A DNA stretch of 64,000 nucleotides from a bacterium (GTDB lineage: Bacteria > Pseudomonadota > Alphaproteobacteria > Caulobacterales > Caulobacteraceae), in contig JAVBXP010000038.1 of NCBI GenBank assembly GCA_030824495.1, positions 23,045 through 87,044 on the forward strand, given 5' to 3'. This document shows positions 21,457 to 25,851 of this stretch, in pieces. The translations under genes were made by a program, and so were the position numbers. The notes under the pieces are model-generated. The model was not told the origin of the DNA. It worked only from the letters and a program-made list of their open reading frames with translations, and did no database searches. Numbering within the stretch: the first letter of the stretch is position 1; every line of letters begins with the position of its first letter.

Positions 21457-22950
21457 TTAGTCCAGCGGGGTCCAACGCTTGGCGGGAGCCGCCTGGCCGC
21501 CGCCGCCTTGGGCCTTCTCGCGCTTCGGACCCTTGAACTGAGTTTGGCTGATCGGCGTGGTCGAGGCCCGTTCGCCGCCCGTGCGGGCGCCGTGCGGATG
21601 GCGATCGCCGCCGCCCTGTCCTTGACGTTGTCCGCCGCCGGCGCTCGGACGGTTGCGCTGCTGGCGCAGGCCGCCGGGCAGGTCGCTGCGGCCTTGCGGC
21701 TTGCGCTGGCCACGATCACCGCGGTCGCCTTCGCGACGTCCGGCTTCGGCGCGTTCAGCGGCGATTTCCGGCATGGCCTGGGTCATGACGTGCAGACCCT
21801 TGTCGTTGCGGCGGTCGAAGGACGGAATGGTCTGGCGCGTCACCTTCTGGATGTCGCGGAGCAGGTTGCGTTCGTCGTCGGCGCAGAAGGCCACGGCCGA
21901 ACCGTTGGCGCCGGCGCGGGCCGTCCGGCCAATGCGGTGCACGTAGGATTCCGGCACGTTCGGCAGTTCGTACTGAACCACGTGGGTCACGGCGTCGACG
22001 TCGATGCCGCGGGCGGCGATGTCGGTGGCGACAAGGGCGCGGACTTCACCGGCCTTGAAGGACGCCAGCGAGCGTTCGCGTTGGCCTTGGCTCTTGTCGC
22101 CGTGGATGGCCGCAGCTTCCACGCCGGCCGCTTCGAGCGACTTGGCCACCCGGTCGGCGCCGCGCTTGGTGCGGGTGAAGACGATCACGCGCTTGAAGTT
22201 CTTCTCGGCGAACAGTTCGCAGAGCAGGGCGCGCTTGCGGGCGGTCTCGACGAAGATGACCTTCTGGGTCACGCGTTCGACCGTGGTCGATTCCGGAGCG
22301 ACGGCGACCTTGTGGGGGTTGGGGTTCAGCAGTTCGCTGGCCAACTTGCCGATCTCGGTCGGCATGGTCGCCGAGAAGAACAGGTTTTGGCGATCCTTGG
22401 GCAGGTGCTTCACGATCCGGCGGATCGGCAGGATGAAGCCCATGTCCAGCATCTGGTCGGCTTCATCGAGAACGAACATCTCGACGCCTTGCAGGGTGAT
22501 GGACTTCTCGCCCAGGTGGTCGATCAAACGGCCCGGGGTGGCGACGAGCACGTCGACGCCAGGCGCCATGGCGCGCATCTGGCCGCCATACTTCACGCCG
22601 CCGAACACCACGGCGACGGAGACGCCCATGTGCTTGCCGTAGGTCTTGAAGCTCTCGGCGATCTGGGTGGCCAGTTCGCGGGTCGGGGACAGAACCAACA
22701 CGCGGCAGCCGCGACGGGGCGCAGGCTTACGGTCGGCGGCGAGGCGATGCAGGATCGGCAAGGCGAAGGCGGCGGTCTTGCCGGTGCCGGTCTGGGCGAT
22801 GCCCAGCAGGTCGCGGCCGCTCATCACGCCCGGAATGGCCTGAGCCTGGATCGGGGTGGGCGTGTCGTAGCCCTCGTCGGCCAGGGCCTTGAGCAAGGAT
22901 TTGTCGAGGCCGAGGTCAGTAAACTTGGTCAAAACGTATGTGTCTTTCAC
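21457..22950 (-). CDS. DEAD/DEAH-box RNA helicase (RhlE-like)
   Basis: AQTGTGKTAAF, VLDEADQMLDMG, SATMP, HRIGRTARAG, basic C-terminal tail. Confidence 0.95.
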   Translation of the reverse strand: MKDTYVLTKFTDLGLDKSLLKALADEGYDTPTPIQAQAIPGVMSGRDLLGIAQTGTGKTAAFALPILHRLAADRKPAPRRGCRVLVLSPTRELATQIAESFKTYGKHMGVSVAVVFGGVKYGGQMRAMAPGVDVLVATPGRLIDHLGEKSITLQGVEMFVLDEADQMLDMGFILPIRRIVKHLPKDRQNLFFSATMPTEIGKLASELLNPNPHKVAVAPESTTVERVTQKVIFVETARKRALLCELFAEKNFKRVIVFTRTKRGADRVAKSLEAAGVEAAAIHGDKSQGQRERSLASFKAGEVRALVATDIAARGIDVDAVTHVVQYELPNVPESYVHRIGRTARAGANGSAVAFCADDERNLLRDIQKVTRQTIPSFDRRNDKGLHVMTQAMPEIAAERAEAGRREGDRGDRGQRKPQGRSDLPGGLRQQRNRPSAGGGQRQGQGGGDRHPHGARTGGERASTTPISQTQFKGPKREKAQGGGGQAAPAKRWTPLD

Positions 22951-23228: not shown

Positions 23229-23639
23229 ATGGCTGAAACCAAACCCATGCTGTTCGTCGCCGCCGCGGCCTTGATCGACACCGATGGTCGCGTGCTGATC
23301 TGCAAGCGGCCGCAAGGCAAACAACTCGCCGGTCTTTGGGAGTTTCCGGGTGGCAAGGTTGAGCCGGGCGAATCGCCCGAGCAGTGCCTCATCCGTGAAC
23401 TGGACGAGGAACTGGGGATCCAGGTGTCGCACGCCTGCCTCGCTCCCTTTGTCTTCGCCAGCCACGCCTACGAGACCTTCCATCTGATGATGCCGCTCTA
23501 TCTGTGCCGGCGGTGGGAGGGCTTCGTGACGGCCAAGGAACATGACGCCATCGCCTGGGTGAAGCCCTCACAGCTTACCGACTACCCGATGCCGCCCGCG
23601 GACGAGCCGCTGGTCGCCTGGCTGCGCGACCTGATCTGA
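23229..23639 (+). CDS. mutT: (Deoxy)nucleoside triphosphate pyrophosphohydrolase, MutT/Nudix
   Basis: Nudix box GGKVEPGESPEQCLIRELDEELGI. Confidence 0.93.
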   Translation: MAETKPMLFVAAAALIDTDGRVLICKRPQGKQLAGLWEFPGGKVEPGESPEQCLIRELDEELGIQVSHACLAPFVFASHAYETFHLMMPLYLCRRWEGFVTAKEHDAIAWVKPSQLTDYPMPPADEPLVAWLRDLI

Positions 23640-23732
23640 GCCAGCCCGTCGAGAGTTATGCGTGGGACGGCACGGTCGTCTGCGGCTAGCCTTTCTTCAG
23701 GCGGCGATGAGTCCGCCGCGAGGAAACTGGCC

Positions 23733-24263
23733 ATGCCCCCGTCGAGACCCCGGCCCAAGGCGGCCGCAAAGTTCTTCGGCCTCTATCGCGGCGTCGTCGT
23801 CGCGAACCTCGATCCCGAGGGGACGGGCCGCCTTTCCGTCGTGTGTCCCGACGTTTTCGAAGTCGCCGGCTGGGCGATGCCTTGCATGCCGTTGGCTGGT
23901 CCCGGCATGGGCGCGGTGTTCGTGCCGCCGGTCGGGGCGGGGGTCTGGCTGCAGTTTGAGGCCGGCGATCCGGACCGGCCTGTCTGGGTCGGCGGCTATT
24001 GGTCCAGCGCCGCCGAGACGCCCGCAGCGTCCCAGGCTGCAGCTCCGTCTGGGCCGCCGATCGTGTTGCAAAGCGCCCTCCAGAACCGGCTGGTGATCAG
24101 CGACCTGCCCGGACTGGCCGGCGGGGTGATGCTGCAGAGCGCCTCGGGCGCCACCATCCGGGTGACCGACGCCGGCATCACCATCGACAACGGGCAGGGC
24201 GCGCGCATCGTGCTGCACGGTCCGTCCGTCACTATCAACGGCGGCGCGTTGGAGATCACCTGA
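23733..24263 (+). CDS. Phage baseplate assembly protein V / VgrG-like spike (OB fold plus beta-helix)
   Basis: FFGLYRGVVVANLDPEGTGRLSVVCPDVF..PVGAGVWLQFEAGDPDRPVWVGGYW (gp5/gpV OB-fold pattern), then hydrophobic-alternating repeats GATIRVTDAGITIDNGQGARIVLHGPSVTINGGALEIT. Confidence 0.82.
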   Translation: MPPSRPRPKAAAKFFGLYRGVVVANLDPEGTGRLSVVCPDVFEVAGWAMPCMPLAGPGMGAVFVPPVGAGVWLQFEAGDPDRPVWVGGYWSSAAETPAASQAAAPSGPPIVLQSALQNRLVISDLPGLAGGVMLQSASGATIRVTDAGITIDNGQGARIVLHGPSVTINGGALEIT

Positions 24264-24580
24264 TGGCCGGCCTGCTCCTCGACACCGCCGCAGCGGTGAT
24301 GTGCGCGCACGGCGGCAGCGCCCATCCGGTTACACCAAACGCCCGGGTGCGCGTGAACGGCGCGCCGATCGCCACTTCATCCGGGACATGGGTGGTGGCC
24401 GGCTGCGCCTTGCCGCCGCAACAAGGCGGTCCCTGCCTTATCGCCCAGTTCACCACGGCTGCGACCCGCATCACCGCCAGCGGCCAGCCTGTATTGCTCG
24501 CCGACAGCCTCGCCGTGGCCACGCCCACCGGCGCGCCGTTGATCGTCGCATCGGCGCAGAACCGGGTGCGCGGGGTCTGA
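24263..24580 (+). CDS. PAAR-like spike-tip protein
   Basis: MCAHGGSAHPVTPNARVRVNGAPIATSSGTWVVAGCALPPQQGGPCLIAQFTTAATRITASGQPVLLADS; Cys/His pattern of PAAR-like tips; start overlaps upstream stop (TGATG). Confidence 0.72.
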   Translation: MAGLLLDTAAAVMCAHGGSAHPVTPNARVRVNGAPIATSSGTWVVAGCALPPQQGGPCLIAQFTTAATRITASGQPVLLADSLAVATPTGAPLIVASAQNRVRGV

Positions 24581-24659
24581 GGCGACGCCGTCTTGACCGA
24601 CAAAGCGCCCGCGCCTAGCCTTCATAGGTCCCCAGCGCGACGCGAAAAGGAGGGTAGCC

Positions 24660-24713
24660 ATGATTGTTCTCAGCCGCACCACCCTTCGCTGCGTCGCCGA
24701 TATGGTATCCTGA
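24660..24713 (+). CDS. Possible 17-aa small ORF
   Basis: AAAAGGAGGGTAGCC-ATG: strong Shine-Dalgarno; MIVLSRTTLRCVADMVS*. Confidence 0.3.
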   Translation: MIVLSRTTLRCVADMVS

Positions 24714-24777: not shown

Positions 24778-25851
24778 TTGCTAGACACATACGGTTGGAG
24801 CCAGACGCTCCAACACCAATTCACCGACCACGCGGCGCGCGGCTTGCTGCCCGCTCGCGTCATCGTTCAACAACGCGGGCTCTACCGGCTCGCCACTCAG
24901 GAGGGCGAGGTCTCGGCCGAGCTCTCAGGCAAGTTCCTCCACGAGGCCCTGACCGGCGACCACCCCGTCGCCGGGGACTGGGTCGCCTGCATGGTGCGTG
25001 CGCAGGAAGCGGCGGCGACCATCCATCACCTGCTGCCACGCTCCAGCGTGTTCATCCGTCGGGCCTCCGGGCCAGGCGGCGGCTCCCAGGTGGTGGCGGC
25101 CAATGTCGACCTTGTGCTGCTGGTCGCCTCGCTCAACGCCGACCTCAGCCTGCGCCGGCTGGAGCGCTATCTCGCGACCGCCTGGGAGAGCGGCGCCCAG
25201 CCGGTCATCGTGCTGACCAAGGCCGATGCTTGCGCGGAGGCGTCGGCTCTGGTCGCGGCGGTGCAGAACATCGCCTTCGGCGTCCCGGTCCATGCCGTCT
25301 CGGCGGTTACGGGGCAGGGGGTGGCCGAAGTCTCGGCCCTGCTGGCTCCGGGCAAGACGGCGGTGCTGCTCGGCTCGTCCGGCGTGGGCAAGTCCACCCT
25401 GGTCAACGCCCTCGCCGGGGCTGAGCTGATGGCCACGGGCGGCATCCGCGAGGACGACGCGCGCGGCCGCCACACCACCACCCATCGCGAACTGGTGGTG
25501 CTGCCCACCGGGGCGCTGATCCTGGACACGCCCGGCATGCGCGAGCTGGGGCTGTGGGACGCCGACGAGGGCATGGCCGCCGCCTTCGCCGATATCAAGG
25601 CTCTGGGCGCGGCCTGCCGGTTTCGCGATTGCAGCCATCAGGCTGAGCCCGGCTGCGCCGTCCGCCTGGCTCTGGAGCGTGGCGACCTCGATGGGGGGCG
25701 CTGGAAGAGCTACGGCAAGCTCCAGCGCGAACTGGCGCACCTGGATCGTCGCGACGATCCCCAGGCTCAGATCGAGAACCGCAAGCTATGGGCCCAGCGC
25801 CACAAGGCCTCTCGCCAGCGGCTCAAACACCGCGACAGCGAAGCGTACTAG
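24778..25851 (+). CDS. rsgA: Ribosome small subunit-dependent GTPase A (TTG start)
   Basis: Circularly permuted GTPase: VLTKADA, LLGSSGVGKSTLVNALAG, LDTPGMRELGLWD, CRFRDCSHQAEPGCAV zinc region. Confidence 0.95.
   Translation: MLDTYGWSQTLQHQFTDHAARGLLPARVIVQQRGLYRLATQEGEVSAELSGKFLHEALTGDHPVAGDWVACMVRAQEAAATIHHLLPRSSVFIRRASGPGGGSQVVAANVDLVLLVASLNADLSLRRLERYLATAWESGAQPVIVLTKADACAEASALVAAVQNIAFGVPVHAVSAVTGQGVAEVSALLAPGKTAVLLGSSGVGKSTLVNALAGAELMATGGIREDDARGRHTTTHRELVVLPTGALILDTPGMRELGLWDADEGMAAAFADIKALGAACRFRDCSHQAEPGCAVRLALERGDLDGGRWKSYGKLQRELAHLDRRDDPQAQIENRKLWAQRHKASRQRLKHRDSEAY

What the first reader, a model, noticed from the sequence alone, without database searches (positions are those of the whole stretch)
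23733..24580. Isolated two-gene contractile-injection spike module (gpV/VgrG-like spike plus PAAR-like tip) outside any prophage
Seen: a gp5/gpV-type OB-fold protein with a short beta-helix tail, translationally coupled (TGATG) to a 105-aa PAAR-like tip with Cys/His-rich motifs (MCAHGG...AGC...GGPC). No sheath, tube, tape-measure, AAA+ ATPase, integrase, lysis or effector gene lies within the window; neighbours are mutT and rsgA. Established: such spike/tip pairs normally sit inside phage tail, T6SS or eCIS loci. Inference: this is either a relic or a domesticated, separately encoded spike loaded onto a tail encoded elsewhere, or a spike with a new role. This is the best candidate here for an undescribed system.
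Basis: partly seen in the sequence, partly recalled or inferred. Interest (0 to 1): 0.7.

Follow-up and report, generated by a model that had tools for sequence, protein, structure and literature searches.

The report
Orphan injection-needle tip gene pair
A few related soil bacteria keep, between two housekeeping genes, just the spike and tip genes of a syringe-like protein weapon although no other part of the weapon was found in their genomes, and natural selection still preserves both genes, so they probably do something on their own.

Summary
In a Phenylobacterium genome, 23733-24263 encodes a 176-aa gpV-type spike (Phage_base_V, E 1e-19) and 24263-24580 a 105-aa PAAR/DUF4280-like tip, overlapping as TGATG between mutT and rsgA. 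The same two genes, in the same order, lie inside extracellular contractile injection system (eCIS) loci of Caulobacter, Mycobacterium, Streptomyces, Novosphingobium and Rhizobium, flanked by a hub gene and gp25. In rhizobial T6SS the tip follows vgrG.

The novelty is the orphan state. The pair sits at this site in 4 of 101 Phenylobacterium species, including isolate Root700. The nearest sisters have mutT-rsgA without it. No sheath, gp25, T4_gp19 tube or Baseplate_J gene was found in the four genomes; all four families were found in a Caulobacter control. Both genes are under purifying selection (omega 0.09-0.19 and 0.19-0.39; none of 500 shuffles as low), so a decaying relic is unlikely.

Most likely it is a transplanted eCIS spike-tip module, kept as a 3:1 complex for a role not needing a machine encoded in the same genome. 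That role is unknown; loading onto an externally supplied machine is not excluded. New variant of a known kind: orphan VgrG-PAAR islands exist for T6SS, including T6SS-null genomes.

The parts
23733..24263 (+). gpV/VgrG-OB-type central spike protein, 176 aa: N-terminal Pro/Lys-rich extension, OB fold (about 18-90), short C-terminal beta-helix (about 109-176)
   Evidence: PF04717 E 1.1e-19; structure model and Foldseek hits to eCIS/T6SS/pyocin/P2 spikes; orthologues in four species; omega 0.09-0.19
24263..24580 (+). PAAR/DUF4280-like spike tip, 105 aa, translationally overlapped with the spike gene (TGATG); candidate metal quartet C14, H16, C48, C58
   Evidence: Family members match DUF4280/PAAR_motif; same gene after gpV in eCIS loci and after tssI/vgrG in rhizobial T6SS; omega 0.19-0.39
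23664..23692 (+). promoter-like element of the pair: GGGACG (23664-23669), 17-bp spacer, TAGCCT (23687-23692); same spacing in all four species
   Evidence: comparison of upstream regions of window, L021, L022, L023; inference from consensus and conservation, not tested
23720..23725 (+). Shine-Dalgarno-like GAGGAA, 7 nt before the spike ATG; preceded by a GGCGG...CCGCC inverted repeat (23700-23717) that is nearly conserved in the four species
   Evidence: sequence
23229..23639 (+). mutT (Nudix hydrolase), left boundary of the insertion
24778..25851 (+). rsgA (ribosome small-subunit GTPase), right boundary; has its own promoter-like TTGACC-N17-TAGCCT at 24593-24621, also present upstream of rsgA in species without the pair

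Best explanation
The two genes are the spike and spike-tip genes of an eCIS type whose hub is split into separate GPD-like and gpV-like proteins. They came to lie between mutT and rsgA in the ancestor of one Phenylobacterium clade and have been kept there as a two-gene unit without the rest of the machine. Shown: family membership, gene order and overlap as in eCIS loci, one monophyletic orphan clade, sister species without the pair, purifying selection, and no detectable sheath, gp25, T4_gp19 tube or Baseplate_J gene in the four genomes. Inferred: gpV trimerises through its OB and beta-helix domains, the C-terminal beta-helix end (NGGALEI) receives one metal-bound PAAR-like tip, and translational coupling sets co-production. 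The resulting 3:1 needle then serves a task that needs no contractile machine encoded in the same genome. The task itself is not known. I judge a machine-independent role (about 0.45; the decoy reading is listed separately as a rival) more likely than loading onto an externally supplied machine.
For: Spike and tip family assignment. The same pair lies between the GPD-like hub gene and gp25 in eCIS loci of Caulobacter, Novosphingobium, Rhizobium, an order relative (G352) and a class relative (G559), and in annotated Mycobacterium and Streptomyces plasmids. Rhizobial T6SS has the tip directly after tssI with the same overlap. Four Phenylobacterium species carry the pair at the same site; orphans are monophyletic, 100/100. 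Three nearest sisters have mutT-rsgA without it. Omega spike 0.09-0.19, tip 0.19-0.39, rsgA 0.07-0.13; 0 of 500 shuffles as low. No sheath, gp25, a family that also covers T6SS TssE, T4_gp19 tube or Baseplate_J over cut-off in the four genomes; all four families were found in control G091. GC3 of the pair (0.85-0.86) equals that of the host (0.858), so nothing suggests a recent arrival.
Against: No positive evidence for any particular machine-independent activity. All four genomes are drafts and at least two are MAGs. The hub (GPD) searches were uninformative: PF05954 missed the known control and the home-made hub profile was run without a known positive. The tip evolves faster than the spike, so part of it may be under weaker constraint. 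The tip structure model is poor (pLDDT 49).
Confidence: 0.45

Rival explanations
1. Auxiliary spike: the pair is an orphan island, like VgrG-PAAR islands of T6SS, whose products are loaded onto a contractile tail (eCIS, phage or tailocin) that comes and goes on plasmids or prophages or infects the cell.
For: Orphan hcp/vgrG/PAAR islands without a full T6SS are common on plasmids (272 plasmids, PMC13098142), and intact aux clusters occur in T6SS-null Ralstonia (PMC11481896). PAAR subtypes are shared between eCIS and T6SS (PMC8651086). The spike keeps nearly all family-level conserved residues, or their covarying replacements.
Against: No CIS marker found in any of the four genomes, there is no effector or immunity gene beside the pair, and selection has been continuous over a synonymous divergence of about 0.2-0.6.
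Confidence: 0.25
2. Interference decoy: the free spike-tip complex occupies the hub of an invading contractile phage or tailocin and blocks its assembly or firing.
For: Only the spike and tip are kept, in a short unit with its own promoter-like element at a chromosomal site; the pair is present in some species only.
Against: No direct evidence. The OB domain is at most about 50% identical to phage-contig spikes in hand, and no phage record carries the tip.
Confidence: 0.12
3. A diverged CIS is present in the genome but was missed by the family searches or lies in an assembly gap.
For: Draft genomes; some families detect even the control only weakly (Baseplate_J 3.6e-8; PF05954 missed it).
Against: Four separate markers negative in four genomes rated 94-100% complete, one of them an isolate (G270/Root700); the own genome has only one Phage_base_V match over cut-off.
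Confidence: 0.11
4. Decaying relic of an eCIS that was deleted.
For: No other CIS gene found; the tip evolves faster than the spike.
Against: Intact ORFs, overlap, ribosome site and promoter-like element in four species; omega well below 1 within the clade; no sign of other eCIS genes in the 93-bp and 197-bp flanks; sister species have the locus without the pair or detectable remnants.
Confidence: 0.07

Closest known systems
eCIS with split hub and spike (GPD-like, gpV, PAAR-like tip, gp25, Baseplate_J), e.g. Mycobacterium sp. JS623 pMYCSM01 and Caulobacter eCIS loci
   Same: Same two protein families, adjacent in the same order; 43-51% identity for the spike and 39-46% for the tip in Caulobacter and Mycobacterium; stop and start overlap also in Caulobacter
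   Different: Here no hub, gp25, baseplate, tube, sheath, tape measure or ATPase gene accompanies the pair, and the CIS markers tested are not detected in the genome
Orphan VgrG-PAAR (auxiliary) islands of T6SS
   Same: Spike and tip genes encoded away from any secretion cluster; also known in T6SS-null genomes (PMC11481896) and plasmids (PMC13098142)
   Different: Those are full-length VgrG, usually with effector/immunity genes and a resident T6SS; here a gpV-only spike, no effector, no T6SS marker, and a fixed chromosomal place in four species
P2 gpV / R2-pyocin spike / T4 gp5-gp5.4
   Same: OB fold plus short triple beta-helix carrying a tip
   Different: In those cases the gene is part of a tail gene cluster (own knowledge); only sequence and fold level similarity here

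Membership tests
Phage_base_V / gpV-type CIS spike | OB-fold domain over the curated Pfam cut-off | tested here: met
   71 bits against cut-off 23.8
Phage_base_V / gpV-type CIS spike | C-terminal beta-helix and overall fold of a CIS spike | tested here: met
   all-beta C-terminal half; Foldseek E 1.7e-8 to AlgoCIS spike, 1e-4 to R2-pyocin spike; monomer model only, TM about 0.4
PAAR/DUF4280-like tip | sequence match to PAAR or DUF4280 models | tested here: inconclusive
   the window protein itself does not match; 6 of 11 (DUF4280) and 4 of 11 (PAAR_motif) family members do
PAAR/DUF4280-like tip | gene directly downstream of gpV or vgrG | tested here: met
   window; eCIS loci; T6SS tssI
PAAR/DUF4280-like tip | conserved Cys/His metal-site candidates | tested here: met
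   C14, H16, C48, C58 invariant in 11 sequences; metal binding itself not testable
eCIS locus | sheath, tube, Baseplate_J, gp25 near the spike | tested here: not met
   not in the window nor found in the genome
T6SS orphan VgrG-PAAR island | VgrG with gp27-like hub domain plus PAAR, effector or immunity genes, T6SS elsewhere | tested here: not met
   spike is gpV-only, no effector gene adjacent, no TssE/gp25-family gene found
Prophage tail module | neighbouring integrase, tail, lysis genes | tested here: not met
   housekeeping neighbours on both sides

The most novel reading that the evidence does not exclude
A contractile-injection spike and tip have been domesticated as a free-standing protein needle with a physiological or defensive role in a bacterium that has no contractile machine at all.
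Probability: 0.35. Interest if true: 0.7.

Novelty: new variant of a known kind. Interest (0 to 1): 0.45.

Why it matters
CIS spikes are thought to matter only at the end of a contractile tube. A spike-tip pair conserved by selection in genomes without detectable sheath, tube or baseplate genes gives a small, testable case for a second use of these proteins (interference with phages or tailocins, or a machine-independent activity), or for selection by machines supplied from outside.

Tried and rejected
Idea that the orphan spike had lost a hub-binding charge pair: K17 and E74 are invariant in 11 of 11 eCIS- or contig-linked relatives but L17/Q74 in all orphans. In 101 distinct aligned sequences the two positions covary (K with E in 41; L, I, V, T or Q at 17 with Q at 74 in 28; K with Q never), and many spikes on viral contigs use the L/Q form, so this is a coordinated swap, not decay.

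Phage origin: the tip has no hit in phages, the spike one weak hit. The OB-domain tree does not resolve the donor.

Searches for the hub: PF05954 missed the control and profile A5 had no known positive in the set searched, so both are uninformative.

Class-wide search for further tips found only one full eCIS-linked hit and one fragment beside gp25; no second orphan lineage was seen, but that search scored only the best 12 candidates per genome.

hhalign of the tip profile against a single classical PAAR was not significant; the tip model is too poor for fold search.

Full report
What is there. The window lies in a 4.15-Mb, 85-contig genome whose nearest named relatives are Phenylobacterium. 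ORF 23733-24263 gives a 176-aa protein with a Phage_base_V OB domain (E 1.1e-19). Its model, made from the window protein and 15 relatives, has mean pLDDT 76.5 and best matches the spikes of AlgoCIS, the Anabaena CIS, T6SS VgrG, Streptomyces CIS, PVC and the R2 pyocin. ORF 24263-24580 begins inside the stop codon of the first (TGATG) and gives 105 aa. Alone it matches no spike or PAAR family, but relatives match DUF4280 and PAAR_motif, and all share C14, H16, C48 and C58. Neighbours are mutT and rsgA, and the called ORFs of the window look like chromosomal housekeeping and metabolic genes, with no evident CIS or prophage gene (read from the translations, not each scanned against Pfam).

Where the pair normally lives. 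The closest non-Phenylobacterium relatives sit in eCIS loci. In Caulobacter the order is sheath, tube..., ATPase, a long 1724-aa gene, Afp7-like, LysM, GPD-like hub, gpV, tip, gp25, Baseplate_J, further baseplate genes (the sheath and tube were seen in G091). Annotated plasmids of Mycobacterium sp. JS623 and a Streptomyces show the same gpV-tip-gp25-Baseplate_J order, and so do loci from Novosphingobium, Rhizobium and a class relative. An Acetobacteraceae eCIS has the gpV but no tip at that place. In Sinorhizobium T6SS the tip directly follows tssI/vgrG, which independently supports its role as a tip. The genes themselves are therefore known parts.

The orphan state. The pair occurs in 4 of 101 Phenylobacterium species searched; three others carry only distant spikes (29-38% identity). 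In all four, the order is mutT-spike-tip-rsgA. One is an isolate, Root700 (L023/G270). In the three species whose mutT is most similar, mutT is followed by a short ORF that looks like a Flp-type pilin and then rsgA, with no trace of the pair. The four orphan spikes are monophyletic (100/100). The pair is as GC3-rich as the host genes. I infer one insertion (or one retained relocation) before these species split.

No machine found. In the four genomes, searches for sheath PF04984, GPW_gp25 PF04965, which includes T6SS TssE, T4_gp19 tube PF06841 and Baseplate_J PF04865 gave nothing over cut-off, while the Caulobacter control G091 was found with each family. Hub searches are uninformative because the control was missed or no known positive was included.

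Selection. Pairwise Nei-Gojobori values among the four species: spike dN/dS 0.09-0.19, tip 0.19-0.39, compared with mutT 0.03-0.08 and rsgA 0.07-0.13, at dS about 0.2-0.6. In 500 random placements of the same substitutions none gave a ratio as low in any pair. The spike beta-helix is at least as constrained as its OB domain. Two charged positions invariant in eCIS- or contig-linked relatives (K17, E74) are L and Q in the orphans, but these positions covary throughout the family, so the change is compatible with an intact fold. Upstream, GGGACG-N17-TAGCCT (GCGACG in L021, TAGCTT in L022) and a GAGGA ribosome site are kept in the four species although the sequence between the two hexamers has drifted. 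This is against a decaying relic.

What it most likely does. By homology the spike forms a trimeric needle and the tip caps it; this is inference. Because selection has acted without a detectable machine, I favour a role that does not need a contractile apparatus encoded in the same genome. Interference with incoming contractile phages or tailocins is one specific form of that, listed as a rival. The main rival is an auxiliary spike for machines that arrive on mobile elements, for which T6SS offers precedents (PMC13098142; PMC11481896). Neither activity has been shown here.

Literature. No held paper mentions both contractile injection systems and Phenylobacterium. A survey found eCIS in 1.9% of sequenced bacteria and used Afp8 and Afp11 as core genes (PMC8213781). 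A PAAR survey assigned at least 16.3% of PAAR genes to eCIS and 20.7% to T6SS by neighbourhood (PMC8651086), so PAAR genes away from recognised clusters are not rare in general. A conserved spike-tip pair in genomes without detected CIS markers is the unusual part.

Verdict. Observation confirmed; interpretation partly supported; a new variant of a known kind (orphan CIS spike island), interest 0.45.

Noticed in passing
L050-L052, about 1899-2066 (species without the pair): In the sister species the mutT-rsgA gap carries a short ORF (MKFLIADTRG...VIYAVVAGLV...) that looks like a Flp-type pilin and overlaps the mutT stop; it is absent where the spike-tip pair sits.
   Followed up: partly
window 24662-24712 and upstream of rsgA in L021-L023, L050-L052: A short conserved leader ORF or RNA segment (ATGAYTGTTCTC..., about 17 codons) lies between the rsgA promoter-like element and rsgA in species with and without the pair.
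   Followed up: no
window 22277-22372: ARAGORN reports a 96-nt tRNA-His inside the DEAD-box helicase gene on the opposite strand; probably a false positive.
   Followed up: no
L039:1746-3176: In Root700 a gene for a 476-aa protein resembling a serralysin-type metallopeptidase (by eye) lies between the DEAD-box gene and mutT, next to the spike-tip pair; it is absent in the window.
   Followed up: no
spike positions 17 and 74 across 101 aligned homologous sequences: Covariation of K17-E74 with hydrophobic or T/Q at 17 and Q at 74 in Phage_base_V OB domains (K with Q never seen) suggests a direct contact pair.
   Followed up: partly
L024:10486-10591: An Acetobacteraceae eCIS has the gpV gene followed by gp25 with only about 100 bp between and no tip gene there.
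   Followed up: partly
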